Assembly: GCA_029880245.1 (NCBI GenBank)
Contig: JAOUOR010000013.1
Location: 1 to 37,221, forward strand
Origin: Alphaproteobacteria bacterium
GTDB lineage: Bacteria; Pseudomonadota; Alphaproteobacteria; Micavibrionales; Micavibrionaceae
Direction: 5' to 3'
Length of the DNA stretch: 37,221 nucleotides
The position numbers were made by a program, and so were the translations under genes. The notes below the pieces were generated by a model. The model had not been told where the DNA came from. It was given only the letters and a program-made list of their open reading frames with translations, and searched no databases. Below are positions 10,935 through 19,469 of this stretch, piece by piece (positions within the stretch are counted from its first letter, which is position 1; each line of letters opens with the position of its first letter).

Positions 10935-11015
10935 TTGCTTTTTTAATTTTCTTTACCGTATAGTAAGGGTAATGAATTATAAAAACACATAAAAATGTGC
11001 TATAGTATTAAGGTG
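10935..11015 (+). promoter_or_regulatory. predicted promoter region of the orphan locus
   Basis: TTGCTT (10935-10940), an 18-base spacer and TATAGT (10959-10964) form a good sigma70-like promoter. Downstream, CACAT-AAAA-ATGTG (10986-10999) is a perfect inverted repeat immediately before a second TATAGT (11001-11006), so an operator over a second start point is plausible. The rest of the 10855-11101 gap shows nothing else apart from a possible leader ORF. Predicted from sequence only. Confidence 0.55.
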
Positions 11016-11021
11016 ATAATA

Positions 11022-11102
11022 GTGCGAAAGATTACACAAAATATACGTTTCCTACAGGATTTTACGCTTTCTGATGCATATAAGATCGGGAGGGTTTTGT
11101 AA
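11022..11102 (+). CDS. possible 26-residue leader peptide
   Basis: A GTG codon at 11022 is preceded at good distance by AAGGTG (11010-11015), the same AGGTGA-type ribosome site used by the two large downstream genes. The frame runs 26 codons to a TAA whose last base is the A of the next ATG (TAATG), the classic arrangement for translational coupling. The peptide would be basic and end DAYKIGRVL. It is far below normal gene size and codes for nothing I recognise, so it may be chance. If real, it would couple translation of the 234-residue gene to itself. Confidence 0.35.
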   Translation: MRKITQNIRFLQDFTLSDAYKIGRVL

Positions 11103-11806
11103 TGGGAGTTCCTCTTCTTCTACTCTTGGGTATAGGCGGTTACGGCCTCAATTCAATGGATGATGACTGGACTGGCGGTGCCGTAAAACGGTGGATTGGC
11201 AACACGGTCAAAGGCTGGGCTGATGATAAACGAGAAGTTCCAAAAACCCTGTTAGAACAACGCTCCCCAAAAATAGTTAGAGAACCACGAAGCGAGTTAA
11301 ACCGAGAGTTCAGCGAACGAGGCGGTAGTGACGATAAGACTGGCACAACACAAGAACAACTCAAATCCAGCACCAGCGATTTAAGCTTAAAAGGTCAACT
11401 CAGCCAAGCTGCCGCACCTGTAAAACAAGAAACAGAAGAAGCAAAAGGTGATGGACTTATTGAAACTGTAATGAAATTAGCAACCGGTAAAGAAGACTAC
11501 GGCAAAGCTGATGATTTCGGCTTCGCGACAGCTTTCGCAGGTGCTTCAAAACTCGCTGGAGTAGGCAACATGAAAACTGCTGTTCTCACTGCTCTGGCAA
11601 CTGTATTATGGAACTTCAGAGCAGAAATTATCGGGGGATTTAAAACCGCATTCGGAATGGCGTCAAATATGACTGGCTTATCCAACCCGCAAGCTTTAGA
11701 GCGCCCTCCCTTTGAGGCTCTTCAAATACAACTGGACGAAAGAAACCGGCAAGCCAAAGAAGGGCAAGCCCTTTCCTTTAAAAACCCAGAACCAGGGACA
11801 GCATAA
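11102..11806 (+). CDS. unrecognised membrane-associated protein, orphan locus gene 1
   Basis: A 234-residue protein I do not recognise. The start is well supported by GGGAGG just upstream. The N terminus has a short hydrophobic run (GVPLLLLLGIGGYG) that is not a clean signal peptide because no positive residue precedes it. Residues about 45-130 are charged and low in hydrophobics, probably disordered. Residues about 136-195 form a glycine/alanine-rich hydrophobic stretch (AVLTALATVLWNF and neighbours) able to form one or two membrane helices. The tail is polar. It opens a run of six co-directional unknown genes and is followed by a 131-base gap with another predicted promoter. A role as a membrane component partnering the two large proteins is inference from position. 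Confidence 0.75.
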   Translation: MGVPLLLLLGIGGYGLNSMDDDWTGGAVKRWIGNTVKGWADDKREVPKTLLEQRSPKIVREPRSELNREFSERGGSDDKTGTTQEQLKSSTSDLSLKGQLSQAAAPVKQETEEAKGDGLIETVMKLATGKEDYGKADDFGFATAFAGASKLAGVGNMKTAVLTALATVLWNFRAEIIGGFKTAFGMASNMTGLSNPQALERPPFEALQIQLDERNRQAKEGQALSFKNPEPGTA

Positions 11807-11840
11807 AAATCTTAACCCCCTAAAAAATAACAAATTTTAT

Positions 11841-11870
11841 TTGCAATACCAGAACTACATAGTGTAGGAT
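11841..11870 (+). promoter_or_regulatory. predicted promoter before the 859-residue gene
   Basis: TTGCAA (11841-11846), 18-base spacer, TAGGAT (11865-11870). Spacing and the TTGC core match those at 10935 and 18454 in the same locus, which is the main reason for calling it. The ribosome site AGGTGATAAAGAG follows close to the ATG at 11938. Confidence 0.5.
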
Positions 11871-11937
11871 TAACACAAATTAAATGTAATACTGGTAGAA
11901 TAAGGTCAATTTGTACCTGTAACTAGGTGATAAAGAG

Positions 11938-14517
11938 ATGAGCGAAGAAAAACCGGAAGATGATATTATTATAGACGCTGAATGGGAAGAAGTCATTCAC
12001 GTTGATGTCACTGCGCGTGATCATGACCACACTTCTGGTAATGCCGGCCACACGACTTCCGGTGCAAAAACCGATAACACTTCAAATAACGCCAGCTCCA
12101 ATACGGAGGATTTTAACCTCAACTTTGATGAATCAGCCTTCGAATTTATTGATGATCCTGATGCAGTAGAGGCATTTTTATATAAAAAAGATTGGGATAA
12201 AGGACGTCTCGGGAAATATACGCCTCCAAAGGAACCCAGCGCCGATCTACCAAAATTCAGACCCAGAATTGATAAAGATAAGCTATGGGCGCATATTGAT
12301 TATTCAGAAAGCGTCATTATCCCCGACATTGTACTTTTCCCAGTGAAAGCCATGCGCTTGAACTCGGAAAGCATTACTATGCCTGTGATAGAATATGCCG
12401 ACAGGATTATGACAGAAACCGGACTTCGTGAAAAATTTCAGGAGCTTAACGTAAGAGCTCTTGCGACACTTCAACGAAAGGATGGAGGAGCAGAAAAAGC
12501 AAGAGACATTCTTGAAAAATTCTCCAAAAACCAAGAAAATATTAGAGCACTTACCGAATACCGGAACAAAATCCGTGAATTAAGGGATCATGTAGATGAA
12601 ACTTATAAGACTAATAAGGAAAGGAGCAAACGTGGTAAGGATTGGGCAACCTGGCGTCATGATCTTTCAACGGGACAGAAAAAGGAACTGCTAAAATATC
12701 TTGATGATATGGAGAAATTAGCCAATGATATGGCAGATGGTCCAGAGGGCGAAAACGGAACAGAAATTCTTGACAATTTACAGAGAATCAAGACTGGCGA
12801 GCTTAAACTTACAGACGTATATGATAGTGTAACTGGTTTATCCAGCTCGTATAAGCGTGCCAATGACGCCGAAATCCGTTTAACAAATATGTGGCCTGAA
12901 CATGTAAGAGAAAGACCGAACTGGCCTAAAAATACACGAGAGGATGACTACACAACTGCCACTTATCAATACAAAATGGCCTTGGCTCGATCCATTAACG
13001 AGCAGGTTTACAACCCCTATCAGAATACAGGGAGCCCGATTACATATACATTTTTAAGAGATGACGATAATCTGGAAGCCCAATGGCAAAATGTTGTTTT
13101 GGACACTTATGCAGCAAGGGGTGAAGACGGCCGCCCTATTGTTAACTGGAATGATGCTCAAACAGCAGAAAACTTTCTTTCCAGTCTCCTGCCTTTTCTA
13201 ACAAGTGGATTCGGACATGATACCGCCCTTACTATGGAACAATTAGCCGCCCTCAGACAAGCGCCAGGAATGAAAGATATTAAAAACCAGCCACCAATTA
13301 CAGGGTTTCACAAGGCAATCCAAGCAGTCAAGGATGCAAATAAAAATGACCGTTTTTTTCAAGGCCCTGAATTTGACTTATACATGGGTCGTTTAAAAAA
13401 TATAATGCGAAGAGAGAACAGGAGTACTAAAGGTGCTCAGGCTGAATCTACAGGACCAAGAAAGCTGAACCCTGAGCGTTATTTTGGCCTTAACCGGCAA
13501 AACAGATACAGAGCCGAACTCAATCTCTATCCGGTTACTTACGCAAAACAGTATCCGGGCACCAAGCGTTTTGCGCTACCCTATGGCGGCATTGATGTTC
13601 CGCTAAGAAAAAGATTCGCATGGCAAAAACCTTTATTCTATTTTTTGGGTTATGCAGAATTCAGGCCCGGAGAAACGACCAGATTTTCTTCAAAGATAAA
13701 AGATTGGGATAACGTAATAGGTAAACCATTTAAAGACGACGAAAAAAGTGTTTTTAATCTAGTAAGAAGGTCCCTTTTAAGAATTCTCACTGTTGGTTTT
13801 GGTACGATTGACGACTGGAGGCCAAAGAAAGATTCTAAATTAAGCTTTTCTCCATTGGACTGGATAGGATTAAAACCTTCAAAACTAGCTCTTAAAGGGG
13901 CCGCCCTGTCCACTGTAGGCGGTTTAGTGTTTACAGCTGTAGCTGGCCTTGGAAGCATGGCAAGTCTTGATACAAAAAATTGGTTGGGATTTTCTGACGG
14001 CTACAGACCTCAAACATGGGCAACTGACAAAATAGCGCATGATGGTATGAAGAAGGCTACAGCTTGGACAGGCGTTAATGACGGAGAAGGCGTTGGCATC
14101 CCTTTTTATGACCTGGCATATAACAAGGGAGGATACAAATCCGTAGGAGAAACGGCCGGTAAGATAACAGGTACATTAATAGACGCATTTAGTGACTCAA
14201 AAAGTGGCAAGGGTGGCAGTTCCTCTGGCAAGGCCGGCGAAGAAAAGCCAAAAGAAGACCCAAATAAATACGCACCCTATATAGATGACACTTATGAAGC
14301 AGAATCCGAGAGAGATCTTTGGCATAAGCAGAAGAGGACTTTTGATACAGCTGCATCTGATACAGCTGCATCTAAAAAACTCTTCCAAGATGGTTATGAA
14401 GCAGCTACGGACCAGAAAGATTTAGAAAAACATGCGCCCTATATAGATGACACTTATGAAGCAGAATCCGAGAGAGATCTTTGGCACACGGGAGAAGTGG
14501 GTCCGCAAGTAGAGTAA
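11938..14517 (+). CDS. unrecognised large protein with one membrane segment, orphan locus gene 2
   Basis: An 859-residue protein with no family I can name. The N terminus (about 1-65) is acidic and Asn/Ser/Thr/His-rich, likely disordered. Residues about 150-310 are strongly helical and charged, coiled-coil-like. One convincing hydrophobic segment at about 648-672 (GAALSTVGGLVFTAVAGLG) could be a membrane helix or a glycine-zipper-like helix. A flexible Ser/Gly/Lys linker precedes a C-terminal pair of near-identical 18-residue motifs (APYIDDTYEAESERDLWH) 54 residues apart. No signal peptide or catalytic motif is visible. It sits between two other unknown membrane-linked genes in the same orientation. 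A structural or scaffold role is the most I can infer. Confidence 0.78.
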   Translation: MSEEKPEDDIIIDAEWEEVIHVDVTARDHDHTSGNAGHTTSGAKTDNTSNNASSNTEDFNLNFDESAFEFIDDPDAVEAFLYKKDWDKGRLGKYTPPKEPSADLPKFRPRIDKDKLWAHIDYSESVIIPDIVLFPVKAMRLNSESITMPVIEYADRIMTETGLREKFQELNVRALATLQRKDGGAEKARDILEKFSKNQENIRALTEYRNKIRELRDHVDETYKTNKERSKRGKDWATWRHDLSTGQKKELLKYLDDMEKLANDMADGPEGENGTEILDNLQRIKTGELKLTDVYDSVTGLSSSYKRANDAEIRLTNMWPEHVRERPNWPKNTREDDYTTATYQYKMALARSINEQVYNPYQNTGSPITYTFLRDDDNLEAQWQNVVLDTYAARGEDGRPIVNWNDAQTAENFLSSLLPFLTSGFGHDTALTMEQLAALRQAPGMKDIKNQPPITGFHKAIQAVKDANKNDRFFQGPEFDLYMGRLKNIMRRENRSTKGAQAESTGPRKLNPERYFGLNRQNRYRAELNLYPVTYAKQYPGTKRFALPYGGIDVPLRKRFAWQKPLFYFLGYAEFRPGETTRFSSKIKDWDNVIGKPFKDDEKSVFNLVRRSLLRILTVGFGTIDDWRPKKDSKLSFSPLDWIGLKPSKLALKGAALSTVGGLVFTAVAGLGSMASLDTKNWLGFSDGYRPQTWATDKIAHDGMKKATAWTGVNDGEGVGIPFYDLAYNKGGYKSVGETAGKITGTLIDAFSDSKSGKGGSSSGKAGEEKPKEDPNKYAPYIDDTYEAESERDLWHKQKRTFDTAASDTAASKKLFQDGYEAATDQKDLEKHAPYIDDTYEAESERDLWHTGEVGPQVE
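14272..14487 (+). repeat. two-copy 54-bp repeat plus 15-bp tandem repeat in gene 2
   Basis: Copies at 14272-14325 and 14434-14487 differ at only two of 54 bases, both silent, and encode the same 18 residues (779-796 and 833-850). Between them, GATACAGCTGCATCT is repeated perfectly in tandem (14344-14358, 14359-14373). The near-perfect DNA identity points to a recent duplication or ongoing conversion within a C-terminal repeat domain whose copy number could vary between strains. Confidence 0.9.
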
Positions 14518-14590
14518 TAAAATTTTATTTTTTATGGAATATATGGTACAACTAAGGAAACAAAAAAATACAGTTTTAAGGTGAAAGCAC

Positions 14591-17446
14591 ATGGCAGCCG
14601 AAAAAAGAATGTTAAGAATAGAAAATCCCCCTAAAAATCCGGACGAAGCTCTGGAGCTGGCTGCTGCCTTGGCAGGAGGAGATAACCAGGATTTTTTTAA
14701 AGACAATGATAGATATAAAGGTAGTAAGCCACTTACAAACGCTAAAGAGCTTGTCAAAATGATTCAGGACAGGAAAACATCTCTTGAAGAATTTGGTAAA
14801 AGACAAATTAATGCCATGCCTGCTCTACCAGAGACAATAGAGGCAGCTACGACACAAGAACAGCTCGATATGCTCGCCTTAAAACATCAAATCATAAAGA
14901 CTGTAATGGGCTATGGAAACCAACGGTCAGATATTGATATTTACATTAATCCTGATAGAAAAAATCCCGATAAGGGAATACAAGGTTACTTGAAAAAAGT
15001 TGAAAAGCAATACAAGGAAATTGAAGCTCTATATAACATTGATAACAAGACGCAAGATATATCAGTTTTTCAACCATTTCTTGATGAACAAATGCGGGCT
15101 CATAACACACTTTTAAGCAAACTGGATCACTACGACGATGTAAGGAGTACGATCGAAAAGGCCTGTGCCTCTAAAAAACCGCTATCGAAAGAAGACTGGG
15201 CAAGAATTTCAAATATACAATTCCCCCCTCAAACCATATCTGATATTAAAAAATTTTCAGGTCGAATCGAATTTTATGCCCAGCTCGAACAACAAAAAAT
15301 TGCCGTTACTTTCATCGAGATGGCAGCAAGACAAGCCTCGTTAAAAAAGACAGCGGAAACATTTCGTAAAACTGGCAATAATGACAAGCTCCTGAGGGAA
15401 AAAGCGCGCATTGATGCCCTGCAAAATATTCTTGATAAAAAAGACAAGATTCTAACACTCGTTCAAGCAGGAATCAAAACCGGCGAAATAAATAAAACCC
15501 AGATAGAAGGTATGGCTAAATCAGAGAAAGAGTCGGCCATGGACGTGCTTCAATCTCAGGAAGAGGGTTATGCCGTCATCACCCAGACCTTAAATTCCCT
15601 GCGCGACATTTATAAAAACCCTGAACAGGCTGCAGAGGATGATCCTTTGGACTATCTGATTGATAATAGTGGAGCCGTTGTAACACTTGCTCAGGCCAAA
15701 CTATTATCAGAAGAGCACCGAAAAAGAGATCTGGAGCTGGCAACAACAGAGCTTAATGATGCCACTGCCAATTATGCCGAACTTGAAGAGTTAAAGGGTA
15801 AATTTGACGCTCGGGCCAAAGAATACAAGGATAATCCCGATCAGGCAGAGAAACTAAAAGACTTTCAGGATCGCTCAAAAGAGATAGATAAAATTCTGAA
15901 GGATAAGGAGGAGATAGCCAAATCCTTTAAACTCATGAATGACAATGCAGAGGCTATTCAAAAAAGTGAAGATCTAGACGAGGCCAAAAAATTATATGAA
16001 GAACAAAGAAAACAATTAAGCATAATAAAAAGTCTTGCTATGACTACCAGTGATAGCGTTACGCGTTTCACAACTTCATACGAACAAGGTGGCGTAAAAC
16101 CTCAGCCCCCTGCCGCCGCCGAGGCTGCCCCGGATACGAGTTCCTCATCAGGAGGCTCCAGCAGAAGAGCCGGCGGAAGTCCCAGCGCACCAACCACACC
16201 AGACCAGCAAATCGCTGCCCTTAGGAAAGATGCCGAAGCACTTATCAACTACAAACAAGACGGTGAAAAAAAACTATCCGACGGCCACACAGTCCTGTAT
16301 GGCACGGCTACAATGTCCACAACAGTCGACAAACACAATAAGGCCTTTGAAGAACTCACCAAGAAAGCTGAAGAGATAGAAGCAGGTCTTCGGAACCGTG
16401 GAGAGGTGAAAGATGCCGATTCCATCAAAGACGTATTGGATGAGCTTAGAAAATACCGTGATGAGACCTCTCAAATAGATTCCGAGCTTAAAGAGCTCGA
16501 CACACAGGCGAAAGAACTGAAAGGCGAAATTGACAAATTAAACAATGCCAGTGACATTCAGAAAAAACTGAAAGAACTCAAAGACATCAATACGAAGATG
16601 CAAAATATTGTCGGGAATAAATTCCTGCCCGCAAAAAATAAATTTGGCGACATTATCAAAAATAACAAGATGCTGGACGAGCAGCTTAATGGCAATATGA
16701 CCCTAAGCGATTTCGCGCGCAGATATCTGGGTGAACTCGGCAGACGTCTAGTCGGCGAAGACGATGGCGGCCCCAGCCTTTTTAAGGATTTCGCAAATGC
16801 TGCCATAAACAGGTATAACAAAACCAAAGATTGGTGGGTAAAAGAGGTCGGCGCCGAACACGGAAATTCAGCATGGTATATGGGCGCTAATGTCTTAGGC
16901 TTGACTCTGCTTGGCGCTGCCGGTATTTCGCTTTGGAATAACACCGGAGGCAAACTAATGGGTTTCGAGCTTCACGGAATCTGGAGATTTCTGGCTGTAG
17001 GCGCCATTGCCCTTTACGCCATGAGCCAAACCAAAGTAGCAGAAGCCTATACCGAGCGGAAAGACGCGCAAGATGCTTTCGCAAAGTTACGGAAAGAACA
17101 CACAAGAAATGTCGTGCAAACAGGTGGCAACTCCCCTCTTGTCGACACAAGCGCAGGACAACAGAATATTACAATAAGAGACACACGATCCGGAGAAACA
17201 AAAGAGACAATTACAATACCCCCTTCAAAAAAACCAATGACGCTCGAAGACTTTGATAAGGCGGATTTCAGCACGGATACAGGCAAAAGAACAGTTCAAC
17301 AAGGCAGCGGCAATCACACGCCGGACGGAATGCCAAAACCGTCCGAGAGCGTGTCCGGTAGCGATAGTAAAGGTGCAACCCCATCTACAACAACCATGCC
17401 GCCGCCAACCCCTATCATCCCGCTACAACCGGCGACTGCACACTAA
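14591..17446 (+). CDS. unrecognised large coiled-coil membrane protein, orphan locus gene 3
   Basis: A 951-residue protein I do not recognise. AAGGTGA sits 7 bases before the ATG. Residues about 1-500 and 540-720 are rich in Lys/Glu/Leu/Ala heptad-like sequence and should be long coiled coils, separated by a Pro/Ala/Ser/Gly-rich hinge (about 500-535). Two hydrophobic segments follow, at about 759-780 (MGANVLGLTLLGAAGISLW) and 797-813 (FLAVGAIALYAMS), forming a membrane hairpin near the C terminus. The tail is polar, ending in a proline-rich TTTMPPPTPIIPLQP. No signal peptide is seen, so the long N-terminal part is probably cytoplasmic. A tether, scaffold or secretion-related role is possible, but none is shown by a motif. 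Confidence 0.78.
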   Translation: MAAEKRMLRIENPPKNPDEALELAAALAGGDNQDFFKDNDRYKGSKPLTNAKELVKMIQDRKTSLEEFGKRQINAMPALPETIEAATTQEQLDMLALKHQIIKTVMGYGNQRSDIDIYINPDRKNPDKGIQGYLKKVEKQYKEIEALYNIDNKTQDISVFQPFLDEQMRAHNTLLSKLDHYDDVRSTIEKACASKKPLSKEDWARISNIQFPPQTISDIKKFSGRIEFYAQLEQQKIAVTFIEMAARQASLKKTAETFRKTGNNDKLLREKARIDALQNILDKKDKILTLVQAGIKTGEINKTQIEGMAKSEKESAMDVLQSQEEGYAVITQTLNSLRDIYKNPEQAAEDDPLDYLIDNSGAVVTLAQAKLLSEEHRKRDLELATTELNDATANYAELEELKGKFDARAKEYKDNPDQAEKLKDFQDRSKEIDKILKDKEEIAKSFKLMNDNAEAIQKSEDLDEAKKLYEEQRKQLSIIKSLAMTTSDSVTRFTTSYEQGGVKPQPPAAAEAAPDTSSSSGGSSRRAGGSPSAPTTPDQQIAALRKDAEALINYKQDGEKKLSDGHTVLYGTATMSTTVDKHNKAFEELTKKAEEIEAGLRNRGEVKDADSIKDVLDELRKYRDETSQIDSELKELDTQAKELKGEIDKLNNASDIQKKLKELKDINTKMQNIVGNKFLPAKNKFGDIIKNNKMLDEQLNGNMTLSDFARRYLGELGRRLVGEDDGGPSLFKDFANAAINRYNKTKDWWVKEVGAEHGNSAWYMGANVLGLTLLGAAGISLWNNTGGKLMGFELHGIWRFLAVGAIALYAMSQTKVAEAYTERKDAQDAFAKLRKEHTRNVVQTGGNSPLVDTSAGQQNITIRDTRSGETKETITIPPSKKPMTLEDFDKADFSTDTGKRTVQQGSGNHTPDGMPKPSESVSGSDSKGATPSTTTMPPPTPIIPLQPATAH

Positions 17447-17490
17447 ACAGTGAAGCCGCTAACAACTTTGAGAAATAAGAAGGCTGTGTT

Positions 17491-17991
17491 ATGATTTCGT
17501 TAAGTTCTTATCCTTATGATGCTATAGGAAAGACTTCATATGATCACCTATTTCTGGCAGATTTAATCATGTCAACAGAAGAAGACGAAACGAAAGACGC
17601 AAAGCCCGCCAAAAAGGAAAATGGCGCAAAAATGGGGGCAGATTTTGGCGCCAGCCGCTCTTCCGGCCTTAAACATCTGTTTTTGCCGGAAAACTTCGAT
17701 ATATATTGCGACTGCGAGAACGGCCAAAACTATATTTTTCACAAAAACGAGTTAAATTGCACGGTTGATCATCTGGAATATGATCCCGAAACACAGCGCA
17801 TCACAGTTTACACAAATGACGGCCAGAAACTGGATTTAGGCGCCCGTATCCAATGGCTGGTGCGCCCCTATATCGCAAAAGACCAAAATATATTCATCGT
17901 AAGAACACAAGACGGCAAAACTATTGACGGTATTGATGTGCCTTTGATTGTCAAAACACAGGAAAAACTCGAAAATCAGGAACAAACCTAA
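17491..17991 (+). CDS. unrecognised small soluble protein, orphan locus gene 4
   Basis: 166 residues, no known family. The ATG at 17491 has AAGAAGG about 7 bases upstream; an internal ATG at 17569 would give a 140-residue protein starting MSTEEDETKD but lacks a clear ribosome site. After a charged N-terminal region, residues about 65-160 alternate short beta-like stretches and end VPLIVKTQE. That part aligns by eye with the next gene: LEYDPETQRITVYTNDGQKL against LEFNLGTQQLDFVLDNGDSR, and VPLIVKTQE against VPLILHKEE. No signal peptide or membrane segment. It starts 44 bases after the 951-residue gene. Function unknown. Confidence 0.72.
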   Translation: MISLSSYPYDAIGKTSYDHLFLADLIMSTEEDETKDAKPAKKENGAKMGADFGASRSSGLKHLFLPENFDIYCDCENGQNYIFHKNELNCTVDHLEYDPETQRITVYTNDGQKLDLGARIQWLVRPYIAKDQNIFIVRTQDGKTIDGIDVPLIVKTQEKLENQEQT

Positions 17992-18070
17992 AAAAACTTG
18001 AAAAAATACGGGCCTTTTGGCAAAAAAATAGATATACTGTTTGGTAAGAAAATAAAGAAAGATAAACGGG

Positions 18071-18448
18071 ATGGCAAACAAAGCGGCAAGTAGACAGGAA
18101 GGGGCGGATAAGAAAAAGCCGAGCCTTGTTGATTTTGTCTACGGCGTTGATGAAGAACATAGATTACTGGTGCAGGTTGCTGTGAAAGAAGATGGTCGTT
18201 GCGCCGTGTTCTATAACCGCCCGTTTAAAGAAGATCCGGCATGGCTGGAATTTAATCTGGGCACGCAGCAACTGGATTTTGTATTGGATAATGGCGATTC
18301 TCGTGACGCAGGGTTGCCTTTGGGAAACGATATAACCAAGAATATGCAAAACACGCATCAGGTTTTGATGGTATTAATGGATGACGAGACAGGACAAGCC
18401 AAAGAAGGCAAATATGTCCCTCTTATTCTCCATAAAGAAGAACAATAA
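18071..18448 (+). CDS. unrecognised small soluble protein, orphan locus gene 5
   Basis: 125 residues, no known family and no signal or membrane segment. The N terminus is lysine-rich (MANKAASRQEGADKKKPS), followed by a predicted beta-rich domain and an end VPLILHKEEQ. The domain resembles the C-terminal part of the preceding gene in order and spacing of hydrophobic and Asn/Asp-Gly turns, suggesting an old duplication. The GAAAG upstream of the ATG is a weak ribosome site. A TATACT hexamer (18031-18036) could be a -10 element but has no well-spaced -35. Function unknown. Confidence 0.72.
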   Translation: MANKAASRQEGADKKKPSLVDFVYGVDEEHRLLVQVAVKEDGRCAVFYNRPFKEDPAWLEFNLGTQQLDFVLDNGDSRDAGLPLGNDITKNMQNTHQVLMVLMDDETGQAKEGKYVPLILHKEEQ

Positions 18449-18453
18449 AAAGT

Positions 18454-18483
18454 TTGCATTCAAGCAAATAAAATTGTTAGACT
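18454..18483 (+). promoter_or_regulatory. predicted promoter before orphan locus gene 6
   Basis: TTGCAT (18454-18459), 18-base spacer, TAGACT (18478-18483), followed by AATAGGTGAG. Same architecture as the predicted promoters at 10935 and 11841. Confidence 0.5.
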
Positions 18484-18542
18484 AATAGGTGAGCGGTAAA
18501 GTTTTTAAATAGTAGGAAAATGACAAACAAAGGAGTGATAGT

Positions 18543-18959
18543 ATGTCAGGTGATGGAACAACTTCGAACGAGCCAAATAGGCAACTTGATGTTACCGGCG
18601 ATTTTAACAAGGGAAAAGGTGGCATTATCTCTAACGAGTTTTTCAGAACAAATAACCCTAACGCCGCTGTTCATGTTTCATTTGTTACAGATTTAAATGG
18701 TCAGACAACCAAAGCTAACTACCCACTTGGCAAACCCACTACAGGAAATGAGATTACAGACACAAATGCGCTTACGTTTGGTAGTCATCGAATTACTGAT
18801 CCTAAAGGCATTTTAACCGGGTTCGGGCCACTGGAAAGAGTAGCAGCCATTACCACCATCAATATTAATTCTAACGGTGTGGCAGAATATCCACATGTTG
18901 CAGCGCTTGAAGTCGGAACACCTTCTACTGGCGCGGAATACCCGTCGCCACAAGCGTAG
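18543..18959 (+). CDS. unrecognised small protein, orphan locus gene 6
   Basis: 138 residues, unknown family. A strong AAGGAG lies 7 bases before the ATG. The sequence is rich in Gly, Asn and Thr with short beta-like strands (HVSFVTDLNG, ERVAAITTININSNG) and no Cys, signal peptide or membrane segment. A weak resemblance of the centre (SFVTDLNGQTTKANYPLG) to part of gene 5 (DFVLDNGDSRDAGLPLG) hints at a shared fold but is not conclusive. It has its own predicted promoter and is followed after 27 bases by a strong terminator that closes the locus. Confidence 0.72.
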   Translation: MSGDGTTSNEPNRQLDVTGDFNKGKGGIISNEFFRTNNPNAAVHVSFVTDLNGQTTKANYPLGKPTTGNEITDTNALTFGSHRITDPKGILTGFGPLERVAAITTININSNGVAEYPHVAALEVGTPSTGAEYPSPQA

Positions 18960-18986
18960 ATTCACTTTTAAAACTACAGATTATAC

Positions 18987-19021
18987 AAAACCCCGTCGGA
19001 TCACTCCTTGCGGGGTTTTTA
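18987..19021 (+). terminator. intrinsic terminator closing the orphan locus
   Basis: AAAACCCCG (18987-18995) pairs perfectly with CGGGGTTTT (19011-19019), followed by further T residues. It lies 27 bases after the last gene of the cluster and is the only strong terminator seen between purH and this point. Confidence 0.88.
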
Positions 19022-19148: not shown

Positions 19149-19469
19149 TCATTTTCTAAACTCTGCCTCTCTGGACATTCTTTCTTTTTCATCAATATAG
19201 GCTTCAAATTCCTGAACCTGCCGGAGCATTTCCTGCCTTTCTTCCTCCCGTGCTTTTTCATCAAAAAAAACACCCTTCACAAGTAAACCGATCACAGTCA
19301 ACGCCAGAATAGCAAGAATAAAAAGCCGCTTTATTTTTTCATTCGGATCCTGATCCCCCCCCAGATACAAACCCATATTGCCGGATCTGACTTGTTCATC
19401 CACGGGCGCCAAAAACGGGACATGCCCGTCATTCTTACTTGTGTTATTATCCTGATTATCTTCTGCCAT
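19149..19469 (-). CDS. small single-pass membrane protein, unrecognised
   Basis: 106 residues with a polar N-terminal half of about 45 residues, one clear membrane helix at about 49-66 (LFILAILALTVIGLLVKG) and a charged, helical C-terminal tail rich in Glu and Arg. No signal cleavage motif, and no family I can name. It is transcribed divergently from lepA (147 bases between starts) and convergently with the orphan locus. Its stop codon lies inside CTATAGTCATTTTC, a sequence matching the end of the family-A palindromic element, so the 3' end may have been shaped by a repeat insertion. Confidence 0.65.
   Translation of the reverse strand: MAEDNQDNNTSKNDGHVPFLAPVDEQVRSGNMGLYLGGDQDPNEKIKRLFILAILALTVIGLLVKGVFFDEKAREEERQEMLRQVQEFEAYIDEKERMSREAEFRK

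What the first reader, a model, noticed from the sequence alone, without database searches (positions are those of the whole stretch)
10935..19021. Six-gene orphan locus of unknown function
Six co-directional genes with no recognisable family occupy 8 kb between purH and a strong terminator. Order: a 234-aa protein with hydrophobic segments, an 859-aa protein with one membrane segment and C-terminal repeats, a 951-aa coiled-coil protein with a membrane hairpin and proline-rich tail, then three small soluble proteins. Seen: one orientation, similar ribosome sites, similar promoters, one terminator. Inferred: large membrane-tethered structural proteins plus small soluble partners could form an envelope, secretion or contact-dependent apparatus. 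None has a known enzymatic motif.
Basis: partly seen in the sequence, partly recalled or inferred. Interest (0 to 1): 0.85.

Follow-up and report, generated by a model that had tools for sequence, protein, structure and literature searches.

The report
Predator bacteria's swappable protein-and-helper locus
In relatives of the predatory bacterium Micavibrio, one chromosomal slot holds very large membrane-anchored proteins whose main bodies seem to have been exchanged between species, next to two small conserved helper proteins, which looks like an undescribed set of effector-like proteins and their chaperones.

Summary
The six genes are real, co-directional and without known family, but they are not one fixed six-part machine. 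They fill a slot (purH-[A]-[large]-D-E-lepA) kept in Micavibrio-related MAGs: of 29 named loci, 19 hold both purH and lepA, and D-E are adjacent in 25. B and C carry two domains found on one ORF in seven relatives. D and E are paralogs of a new small beta-rich family (107 matches in 41 of 58 relatives; 6 of 289 genomes across the class). Other copies lie beside other orphan proteins, some of which share end modules while their bodies differ (zeta-toxin-like, HExxH). In the slot, the N domain of the large protein conflicts with the species tree for two sister pairs (AU p 3.5e-7, 1.4e-10), while its C module and D/E follow it. Best reading: D/E are dedicated chaperones or adaptors of modular, membrane-inserting effector- or recognition-type proteins, possibly used on prey. 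Binding, export and target are inferred. T6SS VipB: 0 of 58 genomes. The E and B-domain models gave no informative fold match.

The parts
11102..11806 (+). A: 234-aa protein with hydrophobic segments near residues 10 and 160; occupant of the variable 'A slot'
   Evidence: homolog only in G006 among the 57 other genomes searched; no clear homology to A-slot proteins of other groups
11938..14517 (+). B: 859-aa large protein carrying the helical N domain (residues 103-452) and one hydrophobic segment near 659
   Evidence: model of residues 60-699 pLDDT 67 overall with a better-predicted helical core
12244..13293 (+). conserved N domain of the large protein (body that conflicts with the species tree)
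   Evidence: 19-member profile; trees
14275..14486 (+). two copies of a 50-bp direct repeat (14275-14324, 14437-14486) encoding YIDDTYEAESERDLWH near the B C-terminus
   Evidence: read from sequence
14591..17446 (+). C: 951-aa coiled-coil protein with C-terminal membrane hairpin and Pro/Thr-rich tail
   Evidence: homolog in G006 over most of its length
16121..17032 (+). conserved C module of the large protein (Gly/Trp-rich stretch then TM hairpin; hairpin about 16868-17029)
   Evidence: 14-member profile, alignment A5, tree
17491..17991 (+). D: small soluble protein, paralog of E, with an N-terminal extension conserved in close relatives
   Evidence: alignments A2, A7
18071..18448 (+). E: small beta-rich soluble protein, best conserved of the six
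   Evidence: alignment A1; model pLDDT 84.8; identities
18543..18959 (+). F: 138-aa soluble accessory protein, found only in the window's genome and G006 among 58
19003..19016 (+). terminator-like stem followed by T run
   Evidence: site count in the region not above shuffles

Best explanation
The slot encodes a modular, membrane-inserting large protein (here split over B and C) plus two dedicated small helpers (D, E). Shown: the B and C domains sit on one ORF in seven relatives; D/E belong to one new family; for two sister pairs D/E and the C module follow the species tree while the N domain does not; other D/E genes lie next to orphan proteins, some with shared end modules on different bodies and with enzyme-like signatures. 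Inferred: D/E bind the cognate neighbour in the cytoplasm, at its C-terminal or hydrophobic module, keep it soluble and present it for membrane insertion or export, like effector chaperones. The exchanged body is the part that meets a variable target, most likely prey or competitor cells. A would be a membrane partner and F a recent accessory.
For: Of 29 named loci: D-E adjacent in 25, a gene of at least 480 aa directly upstream of D in 25 (three of these cut by the contig end), purH and lepA both present in 19. N domain (19 members) and C module (14 members): both on one ORF in L086, L087, L088, L089, L091, L094, L103; split in window, L083, L085, L105. Identity to the window: LepA 80-95, PurH 66-75, E 43-86, D 35-69 (L097 dropped, its D value is a cross-hit of E), N domain 20-42, C module 22-33 percent. 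LepA, D+E and the C module each join window with L083 (100/98, 100/100, 97/96) and L086 with L088; the N domain rejects both pairs (AU p 3.5e-7, 1.4e-10). L086/L088 large proteins: 14-47 percent identity per 60 columns in the first 18 of 29 blocks, 42-85 in 9 of the last 11; no DNA match between 4847 and 7753 of L086. Other D/E genes: 43 of 53 have a same-strand neighbour of at least 140 aa within 110 bp, against 60 of 108 small control genes (Fisher p 0.0016). Tail 1 is shared by three body types: L114 (zeta-like), L189 (HExxH), and the L121/L188/L133 set; tail 2 by L120 and by the orthologs L134/L167/L168. Genome-wide, tail 2 gives 6 hits = 5 loci, all 5 followed by a D/E gene; 3 are in the model, and all 5 had been fetched because of D/E. 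N-terminus of L120 matches main-locus L094_2 of the same genome (E 1.8e-17). Zeta_toxin E 1.4e-4 in L114. HExxH in 3 of 70 neighbours, shuffles mean 0.36, 4 of 500 reach 3.
Against: Tail 1: the 3 loci with a D/E gene are those the model was built from; the 2 loci found independently have none beside them. Close same-strand neighbours are common (control 56 percent). 6 of the 62 stretches in the set of other D/E genes hold purH or lepA and so may be slot copies. In several other genera the neighbour lies downstream of D/E and a conserved 1-TM protein upstream. Some genomes keep a D/E-like pair between purH and lepA without a large gene (L080, L081). Zeta_toxin is 21.8 bits against a cut-off of 22.3. 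No export system or signal identified; no binding shown. L083 and L088 are long branches in the N-domain tree, and the L086+L088 test was added after that tree was seen. No informative fold match.
Confidence: 0.42

Rival explanations
1. Inner-membrane-anchored cytoplasmic scaffold: the large protein stays in the predator, tethered by its hairpin, organising a pole or envelope structure; D/E are structural subunits.
For: Long coiled coil and hairpin; slot among housekeeping genes with C module and D/E inherited vertically in two tested pairs.
Against: N domain against the species tree and other D/E neighbours with toxin- or protease-like signatures are unusual for a core scaffold.
Confidence: 0.25
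2. Toxin-immunity pairs: D/E are immunity proteins against the neighbouring toxin.
For: Small soluble acidic proteins directly 3' of some toxin-like proteins.
Against: One homologous D/E family beside different bodies; two D/E genes per main locus; tail-1 proteins without D/E.
Confidence: 0.15
3. Domesticated phage or gene-transfer-agent structural proteins (tape measure or internal virion type) kept as a unit.
For: Tape-measure matches in single members, best E 9.5e-5; Gly-rich 'DPxNL' segments recalled from phage large proteins.
Against: No PHROG family matched by more than one of 33 members; E and B find nothing in 50,697 phage records at E 0.01, E nothing in viral contigs; no viral fold match for the B model at E <= 0.001.
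Confidence: 0.08

Closest known systems
Eag (DUF1795) chaperones of T6SS effectors with transmembrane domains
   Same: Small dedicated protein encoded beside a large protein with hydrophobic segments (work-alike; Eag description seen in the search listing of PMC12881460)
   Different: No DUF1795 match of D or E in Pfam at E <= 1; T6SS VipB in 0 of 58 genomes; here the retained module is C-terminal
Polymorphic toxin systems
   Same: Shared end modules with different bodies; toxin- or protease-like bodies in some members
   Different: No known toxin or trafficking domain in B or C; no demonstrated immunity; one small family accompanies different bodies
Phage tape-measure / large polyvalent proteins
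   Same: Very long, helical, with hydrophobic stretches
   Different: No phage homolog found by tblastn (B, E); no shared PHROG family

Membership tests
Eag / DUF1795 chaperones | match to the family profile | tested here: not met
   D and E give no DUF1795 hit in Pfam at E <= 1
Eag / DUF1795 chaperones | DUF1795 fold | tested here: inconclusive
   E model: Foldseek none at E <= 0.001; VIA best Z 3.4 to 6fqa_A, rmsd 4.1, 64 aligned
T6SS effector system | T6SS sheath (VipB/TssC, PF05943) in the genome | tested here: not met
   0 of 58 genomes; control rings in E. coli, 1 of 14 control genomes
T3SS / T4SS effector system | secretion apparatus in the genome | not tested
   not searched here; PMC3189940 section 10 (read) reports neither type in M. 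aeruginosavorus ARL-13
Polymorphic toxin system | conserved end module with variable bodies | tested here: met
   tails and an N-terminus shared with different bodies; N domain against, C module with the species tree in two pairs
Polymorphic toxin system | toxic domain of known type | tested here: inconclusive
   Zeta_toxin just under cut-off in one neighbour protein; HExxH proteins; none in B or C
Polymorphic toxin system | cognate immunity protein and export | not testable with these tools
   needs experiments
Phage tape measure / internal virion protein | homology to phage families | tested here: inconclusive
   single-member tape-measure hits, best E 9.5e-5, in coiled-coil-rich proteins; nothing in phage or viral records for E, or in phage records for B
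Lamassu LmuB / SMC | ATPase head domains around the coiled coil | tested here: not met
   C residues 378-691 match LmuB 192-430/611 (E 4.9e-8), an internal stretch only; no ATPase Pfam hit in C

The most novel reading that the evidence does not exclude
A Micavibrio-lineage system of interchangeable prey- or cell-recognition/effector proteins delivered by a route other than T6SS, in which one small adaptor family (D/E) serves many different cargo proteins and the slot between purH and lepA encodes its largest, membrane-inserting cargo, diversified by exchange of bodies between species.
Probability: 0.25. Interest if true: 0.9.

Novelty: new variant of a known kind. Interest (0 to 1): 0.66.

Why it matters
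How epibiotic predators such as Micavibrio recognise, grip and kill prey is largely unknown; PMC3189940 (abstract and passages read) reports that most highly expressed attack-phase genes are hypothetical. A lineage-restricted family of small helpers gives a handle: each D/E gene points at a candidate cargo, turning an anonymous set of orphan genes into a testable list. Body exchange at one locus would be a sign of an arms race or of a recognition function in predation.

Tried and rejected
Known families for all six, for 33 large homologs and for 20 of the 70 neighbour proteins of other D/E genes: weak scattered hits and the near-threshold Zeta_toxin. PDB profile searches: coiled-coil or helical noise for the N domain and C module, nothing for E. 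Folds: the E and B-domain models found nothing useful; B VIA best Z 6.2, rmsd 8.0, 125 aligned, below the helical noise level given by the tool. PADLOC: LmuB hit on a coiled-coil stretch only. A-slot proteins, 11 groups compared as profiles: 0 of 55 pairs reach 50 percent probability, highest 44.9 (two groups without the window), window group at most 9.6 (the probability column printed was cut and is not used). Phage origin: not supported. Literature: five searches; the listings shown (25 of 99, 15 of 2,321, 25 of 29, 12 of 192, 3 of 3 papers) name neither the locus nor the family in title or abstract start. Only PMC3189940 was opened (outline with abstract, passages, section 10); its RNA-seq supplement could not be read here. 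Gene calls in scripts are simple longest-ORF calls, so starts may be off; 3 of the 62 fetched stretches gave no called D/E ORF.

Full report
What is there. The window is one whole contig of a 2.15-Mb genome in 125 contigs. Six + strand ORFs lie between purH and a terminator-like stem. Pfam, NCBIfam and PHROGs give no family. Named relatives are MAGs titled Micavibrio sp. or Alphaproteobacteria bacterium; the nearest by LepA (L083, Micavibrio sp. UBA1672) has 95 percent identity.

Who has it. In 58 related genomes, the window's own included, the single proteins were found in: A 2, B 6, C 3, D 33, E 37, F 2. A D+E profile gave 107 matches in 41 of 58 genomes: by my count of the table 34 of 37 genomes of the window's family, 5 of 5 of f7, 2 of 6 of f5, 0 of 10 of the other families. 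Across the class it rang in 6 of 289 genomes: the window's own, two of its family and three outside the order.

The slot. Of 29 named loci, 19 hold both purH and lepA on the stretch available, D and E are adjacent in 25, and a gene of at least 480 aa lies directly upstream of D in 25, three of these cut by the contig end. Between purH and D lie usually one 160-260-aa protein, often with a hydrophobic segment (the A slot), and one to three large genes. A separate family of 486-882 aa sits before the main large gene in ten loci. A-slot proteins show no clear homology between groups (0 of 55 profile pairs at 50 percent probability or more). In L112 (G033; its contig length is recalled, not checked, as that of M. 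aeruginosavorus EPB) the arrangement is reduced and purH is not in it: cheR, 209 aa, 438 aa with a hydrophobic segment, D, 227 aa, E, with lepA further on. In L080 and L081 there are D/E-like pairs between purH and lepA without a large gene.

B and C are parts of one protein type. Iterated profiles define an N domain (19 members, B residues 103-452) and a C module (14 members, C residues 511-814). Both sit on single ORFs in seven loci, and on two neighbouring ORFs in the window and three other loci. The C module ends in a Gly/Trp-rich stretch and a membrane hairpin. Scores of profile members are partly by construction.

Bodies exchanged, ends kept. LepA makes window and L083 sisters (100/98) and L086 and L088 sisters (16 of the 19 N-domain rows, those with a complete LepA). 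D+E do the same, and so does the C module (97/96 for both pairs; all 14 rows). The N domain rejects both pairs (AU p 3.5e-7 and 1.4e-10) and puts the window with L086 and L084 (100/98). L086 and L088 differ over the first part of the large protein and agree over the last part, with D, E and LepA alike. L083 and L088 are long branches in the N-domain tree, so fast divergence is not fully excluded; the L086+L088 test was added after that tree was seen.

Other D/E genes. I inspected 60 D/E-family ORFs on 62 stretches outside the named loci; 6 of these stretches hold purH or lepA and may be slot copies of other genera. In a control, 43 of 53 with both neighbours visible have a same-strand neighbour of at least 140 aa within 110 bp, against 60 of 108 other small genes of the same stretches (Fisher p 0.0016): a modest excess. 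The make-up of the neighbours tells more. Tail 1 (about 90 residues) sits on three body types: L114, L189, and a related set L121/L188/L133, in which L188 has the front of L133 and the middle of L121; L125 belongs to that set by body but lacks the tail. Tail 2 is shared by L120 and the orthologs L134/L167/L168, whose bodies differ. The N-terminus of L120 matches that of the large main-locus protein of the same genome, and that of L103. Genome-wide, tail 2 occurs at five loci, all followed by D/E; three are in the model and all had been fetched because of D/E, so the point is only that no copy was found elsewhere. Tail 1 occurs at five loci: three followed by D/E, which are those of the model, and two new ones without D/E. 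That speaks against a strict tail-D/E pairing. L114 carries a Zeta_toxin-like stretch just below cut-off. L113, L117, L161 and L189 carry HExxH (reading it with a following acidic motif as a zinc-peptidase signature is recalled). HExxH occurs in 3 of 70 neighbours against 0.36 in shuffles. In several other genera the neighbour is downstream of D/E and a 1-TM protein family (7 members) lies upstream.

Structure. E is predicted well (pLDDT 84.8; seven strands, a helix at 86-93). B 60-699 is helical with a better core. Neither finds an informative match in the PDB; B was also run against viral models.

Mechanism. The economical reading is that D/E are chaperones or adaptors of one family, serving modular proteins that must stay soluble before entering a membrane or an export route. 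In the purH-lepA slot the cargo is the largest and its body has been exchanged. The reasons are: D/E and the C module keep company through two exchanges of the N domain; D and E are small, acidic and soluble; end modules recur on other neighbours. Prey as target is inferred from the lifestyle described for Micavibrio (PMC3189940, passages read). T6SS VipB is absent in all 58 genomes, and the same paper reports no type III or IV system in ARL-13. The export route, if there is one, is open.

Novelty. The listings of five literature searches named neither locus nor family. It works like an effector-chaperone or polymorphic-toxin arrangement but is not shown to be a member of any such family tested here.

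Noticed in passing
window 19149-19469 (- strand) and equivalents in L084, L086, L088, L094 and others: A small single-TM protein on the opposite strand (about 85-175 aa) recurs between E and lepA in many loci; by sequence the window's copy matches only those of G006 (L017) and G016 (L018) among the stretches.
   Followed up: partly
L128, L138, L141, L149, L151, L159, L160: A conserved 158-217-aa one-TM protein family lies upstream of D/E genes in seven stretches.
   Followed up: partly
window 17491-17568: The first 26 codons of D, before an invariant Met, are conserved in close relatives but absent in L072, L073, L074, L077 and L078: real N-terminal extension or alternative start.
   Followed up: no
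L117:6061-8001: A protein with RTX-like Gly/Asp repeats (start seen) lies two genes upstream of a D/E gene.
   Followed up: no
L085, L086, L087, L088, L089, L091, L094, L096, L103, L105: A second large family (486-882 aa, hydrophobic Gly-rich middle) lies before the main large gene in ten loci but not in the window.
   Followed up: partly
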